Shown: one piece after another, positions 27,596 through 30,831 of the stretch | Position numbering within the stretch: position 1 is the stretch's first letter | How the letters are laid out: each line of letters begins with the position of its first letter | Source of the DNA: a virus | Reading direction: 5' to 3' (one strand) | IMG/VR virus record: IMGVR_UViG_3300005529_000003 | Span: 1 to 64,000 of that record | Length of the DNA: 64,000 bases | Notes under the pieces: model-generated | Databases searched by the model: none | What the model was told of the DNA's origin: nothing | What the model saw: the letters and a program-made list of their open reading frames with translations, nothing else | Program-made: the position numbers and the translations under genes

Positions 27596-29257
27596 TTAAA
27601 ACGGGAATTCGACTTCCTGCTTCTTCGCCTTCTCTGTAAAGCGGAGCAGCTTGAAGATCGGCTGACTTAAGAAGTTCATCATGCCGTCGAGCGGCGTCTG
27701 ATCCTTCTTCTCCTGCTGAGTCTTCGTCTCCTCTCCTCGGAGTAGCCCCTTGAGGATCGAGGGATCGAAGCCGCTGACGAGGAAGCAGCCCTTGTCCGTC
27801 GCGAGGCACGGAAAGTCGGTCGTCTTCGCCCCGTTGACGTGCCACCAGATGATCCGCATCCCAGGCAGACCGCAAGCGGCGAGCTTTTGTCTCGCTTCTT
27901 CGTAGTTCGTCTGAGCGTTGTGATACGATCTTGCCGGCGTGCTGGCGGGGTTGAACTGCATGTCACTGACGACGAGTAGCGTTGACGGAAACGCCTCAAT
28001 AGGAGCCGAGGGGTTCTTGGCCCTTACACGGCACACGGCGTCGATCAGCGATTGGAAGTTCGTACTCCCCATTGCAGTCGGCAGTGACTTGATTTGCCTG
28101 AGCCGCTGCGTGAACGTCCCTGCGAGCTTCACGACCGTCGAGGTGTCGCTGAACATCGCTACGGCGTCCTTGCAGATCCCCGTGTTCAGCATCGAGAAGG
28201 CCACCCCGAGCGACAGGCAGACGTCGATCGGCCTGACCCCCTTGATCAGCTCACACCATCCCATCGATGCGGACGTGTCGAGGCCCACCAGGACGTCTCC
28301 GAGGCAGTGACCCTTGAGCGACTCCAGGCACGTCTCCCACTGCTTGTCGTAGAGCATGTTCTGAATCATGTTCTCCGAACGCTCTGCGGCCCTGCAAAGC
28401 TCGTACGGCTGACCTGTGAACTTCACTCTCCGCTGCTTCTCGAGCCACACACCGAAATCCTCGAACCTTCCGTGGCGCTCGATCCACGACTTCTTGTCTT
28501 GCTTCCCCTTCTGCGAGATCGCGTTCATCAACGCCTTGCCGGGGATCTTGGAGAAGTCGATAAGGTCCCATTTCTTCTGCTGCATCATTCGCTGCCAGAT
28601 GTGAGCCGGGCCAGCGGACTTCAGCTTGCGGTAGTCCTTCTCAGAGAAGCCACAGAAGGCGCAGAGGTCTTTCGCAAAGCCGATTCTCGCCTTGTCTCGC
28701 TCGCTCCTGGCCTTCTTGAACGACCGCATCGTGGGTAGATACTTCAGCAGCAGGGCTTCGTCCAGTGAAACGGCGACCAGGGAAGTCAGCAGCGTTCGGT
28801 TGACCGCAGTCAGGAGAGGCGGCTGGAGGAGGTCTTTCCACGACCCAAACACGGGAACGAGGTCGATGTTGTGTCGCAGCAGCTCGGCGTCGTTGGCGGC
28901 GAGCCATACGAGGCACTTGTAGAACTCGTCACGCCGGCCCATTCCCGTAGCGACTTCTTCGGGGCAGGTTGGGGGTTCGATTCCCTCCGGTCTGTTCGGC
29001 TTCCTCGTGATCAGTCGGAGCCCGAAGATCACCTTCAGGGCAGTCTCCCGATCGTCCTGGAAGATCGCTTCCATGTCCTTGTCTACGGCGGCTTGAGAGC
29101 GGCCGTTGTAAGTTCCACACTTTGAGAAGTATTCGAGACATCGAGCGTACTTCTCGTTGACGCCGCCGACTGCACTGTTTGAAACGGCACCGTTCCATGT
29201 CATCCCGTCCTTCCTTGTGGCGTTCTCATCTTTCAGATCGTTCATGAAGTAACTCAC
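27596..29257 (-). CDS. Ro60/TROVE-like RNA-binding protein with vWA domain (DUF2828 type)
   Basis: 553 residues (GTG 29257; an ATG at 29245 is possible). The N-terminal half starts MTWNGAVSNSAVGGVN and includes LEYFSKCGTYNGRSQ, ALKVIFGLRLITRKP, RRDEFYKCLVWLAAND and LVPVFGSWKDLL: the helical-repeat pattern of TROVE/DUF2828 proteins. The C-terminal half is a von Willebrand A domain with MIDAS residues DTSASMG (about residue 327), GSTNF and VVSDMQF. Ro60 proteins bind misfolded RNA and Y RNAs. Candidate Y-like RNAs lie 0.3-1.6 kb upstream on the same strand. RNA binding is inferred, not seen. Confidence 0.75.
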   Translation of the reverse strand: MSYFMNDLKDENATRKDGMTWNGAVSNSAVGGVNEKYARCLEYFSKCGTYNGRSQAAVDKDMEAIFQDDRETALKVIFGLRLITRKPNRPEGIEPPTCPEEVATGMGRRDEFYKCLVWLAANDAELLRHNIDLVPVFGSWKDLLQPPLLTAVNRTLLTSLVAVSLDEALLLKYLPTMRSFKKARSERDKARIGFAKDLCAFCGFSEKDYRKLKSAGPAHIWQRMMQQKKWDLIDFSKIPGKALMNAISQKGKQDKKSWIERHGRFEDFGVWLEKQRRVKFTGQPYELCRAAERSENMIQNMLYDKQWETCLESLKGHCLGDVLVGLDTSASMGWCELIKGVRPIDVCLSLGVAFSMLNTGICKDAVAMFSDTSTVVKLAGTFTQRLRQIKSLPTAMGSTNFQSLIDAVCRVRAKNPSAPIEAFPSTLLVVSDMQFNPASTPARSYHNAQTNYEEARQKLAACGLPGMRIIWWHVNGAKTTDFPCLATDKGCFLVSGFDPSILKGLLRGEETKTQQEKKDQTPLDGMMNFLSQPIFKLLRFTEKAKKQEVEFPF

Positions 29258-29305
29258 GATCTTCTTCTCTTTCTTCTCTAGTGGTTGCTTTAACCGCTCT
29301 TCTTG

Positions 29306-29566
29306 TTACGCACACCGTCGCATCGGAGGCTTTTTGTTTTGCGGCGTAATGGTGAACTGCGGGAAGCACCTCTTGCATCCAACGTTCCCGCAGTTGCTTG
29401 AGCCTTCGTGGCCGCTCTTCTTTACGCCGCTACCGGCTCTCGGTTGTTTCTTTCGCCGACGTCCTGTGCCTGCATAAGAAGCGTAGAGAGCTTTCTTCGC
29501 CGCTTTCATCTGTTTCTTTGCCGCTTTACGCTTTTCCGCTCGGCGTTTCTTTGATGCTGCTCCCAT
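29306..29566 (-). CDS. Small highly basic protein
   Basis: 86 residues, AAGGAATCTC before ATG. The first half is nearly all Lys/Arg/Ala (KKRRAEKRKAAKKQMKAAKK), the second half has CGNVGCKRCF. Likely binds nucleic acid, by composition. It sits between an ACAGCA-family RNA and the Ro-like gene. Confidence 0.55.
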   Translation of the reverse strand: MGAASKKRRAEKRKAAKKQMKAAKKALYASYAGTGRRRKKQPRAGSGVKKSGHEGSSNCGNVGCKRCFPQFTITPQNKKPPMRRCA

Positions 29567-29601
29567 GAGATTCCTTTTCTTTCTTCTTGTGGAAATAAAA
29601 C

Positions 29602-29648
29602 AGAACGCTTAACCGATTGCATTGGTAAGAAGTTGCTGTGAGCGTTCT
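29602..29648 (-). ncRNA. ACAGCA-family structured RNA, short form
   Basis: Closing stem AGAACGCT/AGCGTTCT (8 bp), one nucleotide, ACAGCA, then a 20-nt loop with ACC/GGT pairing. It shares its first 20 nt almost exactly with the + strand copy at 1637. Between two genes on the same strand as the Ro-like gene, 345 nt upstream of it. Confidence 0.65.
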
Positions 29649-29657
29649 TTGTCTTGT

Positions 29658-29867
29658 TCACCCTGCTGATTCTTTCACGACTTTGTAGACTCGTCTCTCG
29701 TCACTCAATAGTTTCTCGAGATCTGCGAGATTGTCATTTTTAACACTGAAGGCCCACCGATCGCTATTAACGAGTGGGTGGGCTTTTACCTCCTGGTTGT
29801 TCGTCCAGTGCCACCACATTGCGCTCAGTACTCCGTAGTATTCAACAATCACCAATGAATGTGTCAT
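29658..29867 (-). CDS. Hypothetical protein
   Basis: 69 residues; ATG at 29867 with AGAGG about 9 nt upstream. MTHSLVIVEYYGVLSAMWWH and a C-terminal DLEKLLSDERRVYKVVKE; reads like an alpha/beta mini-domain. Unknown function. Confidence 0.5.
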   Translation of the reverse strand: MTHSLVIVEYYGVLSAMWWHWTNNQEVKAHPLVNSDRWAFSVKNDNLADLEKLLSDERRVYKVVKESAG

Positions 29868-29883
29868 TTGTTGAAACCTCTTT

Positions 29884-30081
29884 TCAACACTGGTCGTTGA
29901 CTGCTGGTACTGGCTTTTCGATTTTCGTGTCTCGGTCGAGGAGTTCGTCCCGAACGATGTTGACATCCGGAGGAGCCTCAATCCCGATGCGGATTCGATT
30001 TCCTCGGACTTCGAGAATCTTCACCTTTATGTCTCCATCAATGATCAACGATTCGCCGACCTTGCGAGAGAGTACGAGCAT
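29884..30081 (-). CDS. csrA: Carbon storage regulator CsrA
   Basis: 65 residues beginning MLVLSRKVGESLIIDGDIKV (GTG at 30087 is an alternative start) with GIEAPPDVNIVRDEL: unmistakable CsrA. Conserved RNA-binding residues Leu4 and the VRDE-type Arg44 region are kept. It binds GGA motifs near ribosome sites and can block or stabilise mRNAs. In a phage it could reprogramme host carbon metabolism or regulate phage mRNAs with AAGGAG sites, which are abundant on this strand. Confidence 0.92.
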   Translation of the reverse strand: MLVLSRKVGESLIIDGDIKVKILEVRGNRIRIGIEAPPDVNIVRDELLDRDTKIEKPVPAVNDQC

Positions 30082-30290: not shown

Positions 30291-30317
30291 CCATCGTCTC
30301 CTTCTAGTGTTAAAAAC

Positions 30318-30545
30318 GAAACGCCGTAGGGTTCTTTTGCTTTACCGTTAAGCTACTCCCCCTGAGTACCGCTACGGTAAATACCGTATAACGCCCGCGG
30401 CCGGCGACTCGATTAAAACTTCGACTGTTAAACGATTCGCGACTCGTAACCGTCTGCGTAGACTATCGAGCGTGATCTAGAGGGGGAGGCGGGAGTCGAA
30501 CCCGCATCAAAAGATTAATGTAAGTAAGTTTGCTGTCGGCGTTTC
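30318..30545 (-). ncRNA. ACAGCA-family RNA enclosing a circularly permuted tRNA-like fold (Y RNA-like B)
   Basis: Transcribed right to left. Closing stem GAAACGCC/GGCGTTTC, one nt, ACAGCA, then an anticodon-stem-like strand TCTTTT, T-arm GCGGG-TTCGACT-CCCGC, acceptor 3' strand CTCCCCC, a 119-nt connector, acceptor 5' strand GGGGGAG, D-arm GCTT-AACGGTA-AAGC with GG in the loop, and the matching strand AAAAGA. All tRNA helices pair, but in permuted order, and no valid anticodon loop with U33 can be formed. The architecture equals that of YrlA-type bacterial Y RNAs. Confidence 0.75.
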
Positions 30546-30564
30546 TTGTTATGTGCAAGAAAAC

Positions 30565-30675
30565 GAAACACCGTCTTTTCATCTTTCGCGTCTACCAGTT
30601 CCGCCACTCAAAAGCTTTCGCTGTTGAGGTGGGACTCGAACCCACATGATAAAGAGTTAATGCTGTTGGTGTTTC
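30565..30675 (-). ncRNA. ACAGCA-family RNA enclosing a circularly permuted tRNA-like fold (Y RNA-like A)
   Basis: Closing stem GAAACACC/GGTGTTTC, one nt, ACAGCA, strand TCTTT, T-arm GTGGG-TTCGAGT-CCCAC, acceptor 3' strand CTCAACA, tetraloop-like connector GCGAAAGC, acceptor 5' strand TTTTGAG (6 of 7 pairs), leucine-type D-arm GCGGAACTGGTAGACGC, strand AAAGA. It is 111 nt. Compared with copy B, the closing stem differs by a compensated change (A-T pair versus G-C pair), which is evidence for the helix. Confidence 0.78.
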
Positions 30676-30685
30676 TGAGAAGGTT

Positions 30686-30771
30686 AGACAGCAACTCCAG
30701 GCTCTTTACCTTTGGCGGGACTGGCTTCTCGCCAGTCCCGCCTACGCATTGCACGTACGGAGTTGCTGTCT
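30686..30771. repeat. Long two-part inverted repeat within the RNA cluster
   Basis: Outer arms AGACAGCAACTCC and GGAGTTGCTGTCT (13 bp, perfect, including an ACAGCA) enclose an inner 12-bp hairpin GGCGGGACTGGC/GCCAGTCCCGCC. It separates two ACAGCA-family RNAs. It may be a further structured RNA, a processing signal or a transcription attenuator. Confidence 0.7.
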
Positions 30772-30782
30772 GTGTATTAAAC

Positions 30783-30831
30783 GGAACGCTTGACCTTTGG
30801 TGATGGTGGTTGAGGTTGCTGTGAGCGTTCC
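30783..30831 (-). ncRNA. ACAGCA-family structured RNA, short form
   Basis: Closing stem GGAACGCT/AGCGTTCC (8 bp), one nucleotide, ACAGCA, and a 26-nt loop with ACC/GGT pairing. It is the first RNA of the cluster in the direction of transcription. It has the same layout as the copy at 29602-29648. Confidence 0.65.

What the first reader, a model, noticed from the sequence alone, without database searches (positions are those of the whole stretch)
27596..30831. Candidate phage Ro60/Y-RNA ribonucleoprotein system
A TROVE/DUF2828-like protein with a vWA domain lies downstream, on the same strand, of the tRNA-mimic RNA cluster, together with CsrA, a very basic small protein and two small unknowns. 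Ro60 orthologues with Y RNAs are known in bacteria and in some mycobacteriophages (established knowledge), but I know of none from planctomycete phages nor with five Y-like RNAs of two sizes. The short forms may be pure Ro ligands and the long forms tRNA-mimicking effectors.
Basis: partly seen in the sequence, partly recalled or inferred. Interest (0 to 1): 0.9.

Follow-up and report, generated by a model that had tools for sequence, protein, structure and literature searches.

The report
Phage Ro protein with Y RNAs
A bacterial virus carries a gene for a ring-shaped RNA-binding protein of the Ro60 type together with several small RNAs shaped to fit it, some of which imitate parts of transfer RNA; the same pairing turns up in many other phages.

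Summary
The core of the finding holds. The 553-aa protein (27596-29257, -) models as Ro60 over residues 14-510 (Z 23.0, 422 residues) and belongs to phrog_850; relatives occur in 659 of 50,697 phage records. The fifth (30686-30771) hides the motif inside a stem and matches neither RNA model. A further one lies at 1637-1692 (+). That makes three short RNAs (47-56 nt) and two long ones (111, 228 nt); the long ones carry a permuted tRNA body. Models built only from other phages find all five in this 94.8-kb genome. The two sizes are not peculiar to this phage: Ro genes in unrelated phages have same-strand arrays of both (65 hits, median 3 for permuted motifs), and Rfam's YrlA does not reach its cut-off in the loci scanned. 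Some short RNAs carry anticodon-arm hairpins, and some phages have unpermuted tRNAs with the Ro hairpin where the anticodon arm should be. Most likely an RNP in which Y RNAs occupy Ro and tether tRNA-binding partners; that step is inferred. CsrA and the small ORFs look incidental.

The parts
27596..29257 (-). Ro60/Rsr-like protein, 553 aa (GTG start); HEAT-type N-terminal half and vWA half with intact MIDAS-type residues (D327-x-S329-x-S331, T399, D432)
   Evidence: phrog_850 8e-56, DUF7788 1.8e-21; AlphaFold pLDDT 82.3, Ro60 Z 23.0; invariant columns in A1
29602..29648 (-). short Y-like RNA, 47 nt: AGAACGCT stem, C, ACAGCAAC
   Evidence: R1 27.8 bits E 0.0098; R2 E 0.0055
30783..30831 (-). 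short Y-like RNA, 49 nt: GGAACGCT stem, C, ACAGCAAC
   Evidence: R1 26.6 bits E 0.017; fold z -3.69
1637..1692 (+). short Y-like RNA, 56 nt, far from Ro and on the other strand; interior can form an anticodon-arm hairpin ACAAU[CUCCAAU]GUUGU (CCA)
   Evidence: R1 30.6 bits E 0.0028; R2 E 0.0059; hairpin test; the minimum-energy fold pairs this region otherwise
30565..30675 (-). long Y-like RNA, 111 nt, YrlA layout: Y stem, ACAGCA, T arm (30645-30629), acceptor-like stem with GAAA loop (30628-30607), D arm (30604-30588)
   Evidence: R2 42.5 bits E 2.8e-6; Rfam YrlA 25.4 bits, below its cut-off of 69; layout read
30318..30545 (-). long Y-like RNA, 228 nt: 9-bp Y stem, ACAGCA, T arm (30505-30489), 8-bp acceptor stem (30488-30481 with 30363-30356) enclosing a ~117-nt insertion, D arm (30353-30339)
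   Evidence: R2 29.3 bits E 0.0013, aligned as 30415-30545 because of the insertion; centroid fold shows these stems
30686..30771 (-). perfect hairpin with ACAGCAACTCC inside its own stem; not Y-like by layout, role unknown
   Evidence: repeats I13 and I19; fold -59.3 kcal/mol for 30680-30775; no R1 or R2 match
29884..30087 (-). CsrA homologue, 67 aa, neighbour, probably not part of the RNP
   Evidence: PF02599 2.2e-22
29306..29566 (-). 86-aa very basic protein, neighbour, function unknown
   Evidence: ORF only; no Pfam match

Best explanation
This is a phage Ro ribonucleoprotein. The 553-aa protein is a Ro60/Rsr-type ring. Its ligands are at least five phage-encoded Y RNAs that it recognises by a closing stem followed by ACAGCA. 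The three short RNAs occupy or gate the ring. The two long RNAs add a permuted tRNA body (T arm, acceptor, D arm) that can tether the RNP to a tRNA-binding partner, most likely a host exoribonuclease such as PNPase as in RYPER, so that the infected cell's structured or damaged RNAs (tRNA among them) are handled for the phage. Shown here: protein family and fold, RNA layout, association of such RNAs with Ro genes across phages. Inferred: binding, gating, tethering, partner and target. Identity as a Ro-Y RNP about 0.85; the tethering/RNA-handling mechanism about 0.45.
For: Fold: the seven PDB matches at Foldseek E<=0.001 are all Ro60/Rsr; Z 23.0 over 422 residues; profile A3 against PDB sequences gives only RO60 chains below 0.01. 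RNAs: models built without the window find all five. Association: in 80 IMG/VR Ro loci, stem+ACAGCA on the Ro strand within 2.5 kb, 65 hits in 32 loci against a median of 3 over 60 permuted 6-mers, 5 on the other strand. Of 113 ACAGCAA occurrences near Ro, 56 have their own stem partner against a mean of 3.3 with partners swapped; 2 of 54 on the opposite strand. Whole Ro+ records not used for training: 34 of 56 have an R1 match at E<=0.1 (14 of 16 without G000; 20 of 40), where about 5.6 are expected by chance; 24 of 56 at E<=0.01. Ro-negative records: 0 of 10. YrlA tethering Rsr to PNPase is described in PMC8394870 and PMC7790460 (passages). Overproduced LeBron gp53, a Ro-like protein, is toxic to M. 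smegmatis (PMC13148394 passages). The P100-like phage CKA15 Ro homologue was found in virions, 20 peptides (PMC12282133 passages).
Against: No TROVE Pfam match. The N-terminal half modelled alone does not recover Ro60. 22 of 56 untrained Ro+ records had no R1 match at E<=0.1, several of them fragments. No promoter-like site was found in 29200-31000. The hottest non-coding region of CKA15 (26,236-26,727) does not contain the predicted Y RNAs, which lie near 25.3-25.6 kb there. No PNPase or RNA ligase was seen among the proteins scanned. No binding data exist. The 228-nt RNA has an unexplained insertion.
Confidence: 0.6

Rival explanations
1. Decoy or counter-defence: the Ro RNP displays pieces of tRNA (anticodon arms on short RNAs, tRNA bodies on long ones) to absorb host anticodon nucleases or to shield and repair phage and host tRNAs during infection.
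For: Anticodon-arm-like hairpins (Y-U-NNN-R-N loop, stem >=5) in 10 of 68 short RNAs against a shuffle mean of 1.1 and maximum of 4 in 300; several carry loops of the form CUNNUAA. Unpermuted tRNAs with a Ro hairpin in the anticodon-arm place: 8 cases against at most 2 for permuted motifs other than the one-base shift CAGCAA, which counts the same places. Ro genes often lie in tRNA arrays or near RNA ligase. PMC7790460 suggests YrlA might competitively inhibit an anticodon nuclease (passages). A PNK/PSTK-like kinase lies at 32041-32526.
Against: Only a minority of short RNAs show the hairpin; in the window only 1637-1692 does. Target tRNAs and any nuclease are unknown. In PMC7790460 fragments of YrlA were not detected, so it was not itself a substrate.
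Confidence: 0.3
2. The long RNAs are decayed or rearranged tRNA genes and the short ones ordinary hairpins, with no link to the Ro-like protein.
For: tRNA-like parts are real, and the genome has odd tRNA genes at 2087-2238 and 46742-46837.
Against: Same-strand association with Ro across phages, invariant ACAGCA with varying paired stems, T-arm pairs with compensatory changes, no match in 10 Ro-negative records.
Confidence: 0.06
3. A Y RNA-bound Ro that serves in virion biology rather than RNA decay, for example carried in the particle into the next host.
For: Ro homologue detected in purified CKA15 particles (PMC12282133 passages).
Against: One phage, trace carry-over possible; no data for the window's phage.
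Confidence: 0.1

Closest known systems
Bacterial Rsr-YrlA (Deinococcus, Salmonella), including RYPER
   Same: Ro60-type ring protein; Y stem plus T arm, acceptor and D arm in permuted order
   Different: ACAGCA after the stem where the YrlA model has AUGCU; score far below YrlA's cut-off; several short RNAs without a tRNA body; carried by a phage; no PNPase link tested
Mycobacteriophage Ro-like protein with Y RNAs (e.g. DuncansLeg, L014)
   Same: Ro-like gene with two short and one long ACAGCA RNA directly downstream
   Different: About 27% identity; RNAs downstream of Ro rather than upstream; Y RNAs in mycobacteriophages are already reported (Chen 2014, not held; cited in PMC12282133)
Thermus phage phiLo Ro60 (PDB 9l5y)
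   Same: Phage Ro60; Z 14.5, 408 aligned
   Different: Only the entry title was seen; its RNAs were not examined
Listeria P100-like phages (P100, CKA15)
   Same: Three ACAGCA RNAs directly upstream of the Ro gene
   Different: Herelleviridae phage of Listeria; the CKA15 authors suggest Y RNAs for highly transcribed regions without naming these hairpins in the passages read

Membership tests
Ro60/Rsr (TROVE) protein | Ro60 fold: helical-repeat ring plus vWA domain | tested here: met
   Whole model Z 23.0 to 1yvr, 422 aligned, model 14..510; top seven Foldseek rows all Ro60/Rsr
Ro60/Rsr (TROVE) protein | N-terminal half alone recognisable as TROVE ring | tested here: inconclusive
   Residues 1-310 alone: generic HEAT/ARM rows, best Z 7.5, no Ro60 among the rows shown; Pfam TROVE not matched
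Ro60/Rsr (TROVE) protein | vWA MIDAS residues | tested here: met
   D327, S329, S331, T399, D432 invariant in 18 aligned phage Ro proteins; that these are MIDAS positions is recalled
Phage Ro-like family phrog_850 | profile match | tested here: met
   8e-56, residues 102-519
YrlA (RF02553) | Rfam gathering score 69 | tested here: not met
   25.4 bits for 30562-30675
YrlA (RF02553) | Y stem enclosing T arm, acceptor, D arm in that order | tested here: met
   Alignment over model positions 1-114; R2 matches for both long RNAs
Y RNA (Ro ligand) | bound by its Ro protein | not testable with these tools
   Needs pull-down or gel shift
RYPER | Y RNA tethers Rsr to PNPase | not testable with these tools
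   No partner data; no phage PNPase seen among the proteins scanned

The most novel reading that the evidence does not exclude
Phages of many families use Ro as a platform that displays every part of tRNA on ACAGCA-type Y RNAs: anticodon arms on short RNAs, permuted tRNA bodies on long ones, and whole unpermuted tRNAs whose anticodon arm is replaced by the Ro-binding hairpin (a circular permutation of the same structure). The platform would act as sensor, decoy or repair station against tRNA-cleaving immunity. The window's phage is one member.
Probability: 0.3. Interest if true: 0.9.

Novelty: new variant of a known kind. Interest (0 to 1): 0.72.

Why it matters
Ro60 is a major human autoantigen whose normal work is still argued over. 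A phage RNA class that marks its own Ro ligands by a short exact motif gives many small natural Ro-Y systems in genomes that can be cut and tested, and a simple rule for finding them. It also suggests that some oddly long 'tRNAs' next to phage Ro genes may be Ro ligands, and makes a link between Ro and tRNA attack or repair testable in phages.

Tried and rejected
Close relatives by single-sequence search in IMG/VR: none; the alignment search worked. Terminase relatives L111 and L112 lack Ro and R1 matches, so synteny in near kin could not be followed. Hypothesis that the most abundant CKA15 transcript is one of these RNAs: rejected by coordinates. Host by the attP-like tRNA-Lys 35-mer: 76 genome stretches, mostly Gemmatimonadota, Planctomycetota and Desulfurobacteriaceae by title, not decisive; TIGR02996 (Gemmata-type domain) at 26598-27299 favours Planctomycetota. 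Rfam at gathering score found no YrlA in the window, in 11 loci or in 8 loci. Promoter scan: nothing. N-terminal half alone: no Ro60 among the rows shown. Papers: no held paper was seen to describe two-size phage Y RNA arrays, anticodon-arm Y RNAs or unpermuted tRNA-Y forms; searches only; Chen 2014 could not be read. The covariation count on A2 is partly circular, since rows were chosen by a perfect stem; searches are the freer tests. Dropped before counts: four IMG Ro loci (L055, L059, L091, L109) were not searched as whole records; records behind the training RNAs were left out; L026 and one of two near-identical L057 rows were left out of A2. R1 and R2 E-values are rough.
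Full report
What is there. The window is part of a 94,830-base virus record. At 27596-29257 on the minus strand lies a 553-aa protein that matches phrog_850, 'RNA-binding protein' (8e-56), and Pfam DUF7788 (1.8e-21); DUF2828 is just under its cut-off and TROVE is not matched. Relatives occur in 659 of 50,697 phage records, 583 covering at least 80% of the query, at about 23-29% identity in the rows listed. AlphaFold with 29 relatives gave pLDDT 82.3 and pTM 0.83. All seven PDB rows at Foldseek E<=0.001 are Ro60 or Rsr; VIA-align gives Z 23.0 to the Ro autoantigen (1yvr), 14.5 to a phage Ro60 (9l5y), 14.1 to D. 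radiodurans Rsr, and 11.7 to the best vWA-only row. The N-terminal 310 residues alone gave only HEAT/ARM-type rows up to Z 7.5 and no Foldseek row at E<=0.001; that model is poorer (pLDDT 76.2), so this neither supports nor refutes.

The RNAs. The shared layout is: closing stem, 0-2 bases, ACAGCA, variable interior, closing stem. In the cluster this holds for 30783-30831, 30565-30675, 30318-30545 and 29602-29648. A fifth lies at 1637-1692 on the plus strand, and the 30686-30771 hairpin does not follow the layout. The two long RNAs contain, in this order, a T arm, an acceptor-like stem closed by a loop (GAAA in one, about 117 nt in the other) and a D arm: the YrlA order. Rfam scores one of them 25.4 bits against a cut-off of 69. 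The 228-nt RNA's centroid fold shows the Y stem, T arm, acceptor and D arm; its z-score is only -1.86.

Is it chance? In this genome alone the descriptor is not striking. Model R1 was built from 63 short RNAs of other phages and R2 from 15 long ones. R1 returns three places in the whole genome, the three short RNAs, at E 0.0028 to 0.017. R2 returns 30565-30675 at 2.8e-6, 30415-30545 at 0.0013, two of the short RNAs at 0.006, and then one chance-level place at 0.86.

Other phages. A pattern from the short RNAs found five IMG/VR stretches, three of them with tandem arrays of such hairpins; of the five contigs, the two largest (436 and 203 kb) encode phrog_850 and the three smaller do not. I chose 17 diverse annotated Ro phages from the hit list; by my reading 14 of 17 have at least one such RNA in the stretch fetched, and the other three (XbC2, CBB, ValKK3) have R1 matches elsewhere in their records. 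Of 34 such RNAs checked in 11 annotated loci, one overlaps an annotated CDS, at its edge. In 80 IMG/VR Ro loci, ACAGCA leads all 60 permutations of its letters: 65 hits in 32 loci, median 3. Half of the ACAGCAA near Ro (56 of 113) have their own stem partner against 3.3 with partners swapped, 10 of 59 farther away, 1 of 12 inside the Ro gene and 2 of 54 on the opposite strand. All 60 R2 matches in 28 loci lie on the Ro strand, none in the two Ro-negative relatives; some of those loci hold RNAs used for R1. Among 56 untrained Ro+ records 34 match R1 at E<=0.1, where 5.6 would by chance, and 24 at E<=0.01; among 10 Ro-negative records (T4, phiKZ, SPO1, P1, lambda, T7 and four IMG/VR records) none does. 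That negative set is small, and two of its four IMG/VR records had been fetched by the hairpin pattern itself.

tRNA mimicry of three kinds. Long RNAs: permuted tRNA body, with four of five T-arm pairs showing compensatory changes. Short RNAs: 10 of 68 hold an anticodon-arm-like hairpin with stem of at least 5 against 1.1 by shuffling; the window's 1637-1692 is one. Unpermuted: eight tRNA-like genes in which a short stem-loop followed by ACAGCA stands between D arm and T arm, where the anticodon arm should be, for example L102 9295, L104 7786 and L016 7765. Two odd 'tRNAs' beside the S13 Ro gene look alike by eye, with TTCAGCA. The window has no such unpermuted form.

How it may work. From the cell systems (passages in PMC8394870 and PMC7790460), a Y RNA's stem binds Rsr and its tRNA-like part binds PNPase. 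By analogy the short RNAs would only occupy the ring and the long ones would also recruit a partner. Overproduction of the LeBron Ro-like protein is toxic (PMC13148394 passages), which fits a protein that needs its RNAs in balance, but does not prove it. CKA15 carries its Ro homologue in particles (PMC12282133 passages). The decoy reading rests on the anticodon-arm and unpermuted forms.

What is known and what is new. Phage Ro proteins, a solved phage Ro60 and Y RNAs in mycobacteriophages are known (PMC12282133 passages; Chen 2014 itself not read). PMC7824862 notes Ro/TROVE in some jumbo phages (passages). New here, as far as the searches listed show, are the ACAGCA rule, the regular two-size arrays across phage families, the anticodon-arm short RNAs and the unpermuted isomers. 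The window's locus is one instance of this, hence 'new variant of a known kind'.

Noticed in passing
window 2087-2238 (+): tRNA-Ile(GAT) interrupted by a 78-nt insertion, which reads as lying within the T stem; with the insertion left out ARAGORN finds a regular tRNA-Ile. ARAGORN's intron mode places an insertion of the same length elsewhere.
   Followed up: partly
window 1920-2085 and 2240-2440 (+); 32940-33110 (-): Further tRNA-like stretches with T-arm-like ends that neither ARAGORN nor Rfam recognises; the last has a 7-bp acceptor-like pairing and a T arm.
   Followed up: partly
window 46742-46837 (+): 5' part of a tRNA-Lys directly after an integrase-like ORF (45453-46700), probably attP; the 35-mer occurs exactly in 76 genome stretches.
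   Followed up: partly
window 26598-27299 (-): TIGR02996 domain protein (35.9 bits, cut-off 29.05), a domain named after Gemmata obscuriglobus; hints at a planctomycete host.
   Followed up: partly
window 30686-30771 (-): Very stable hairpin whose 3' arm is complementary to the ACAGCAAC motif of the Y RNAs; could sequester the motif or pair with the Y RNAs.
   Followed up: no
window 32041-32526 (-): Small P-loop kinase of the AAA_33 type with weak similarity to seryl-tRNA(Sec) kinase and polynucleotide kinase.
   Followed up: no
L110 3237-3728 (CKA15 26,236-26,727): Region giving most phage reads in the CKA15 paper; no ACAGCA hairpin in the matching stretch of P100; an unidentified abundant RNA.
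   Followed up: partly
L019 3853-3976: Y stem with ACAGCA enclosing an unpermuted tRNA-like stretch, a further arrangement.
   Followed up: no
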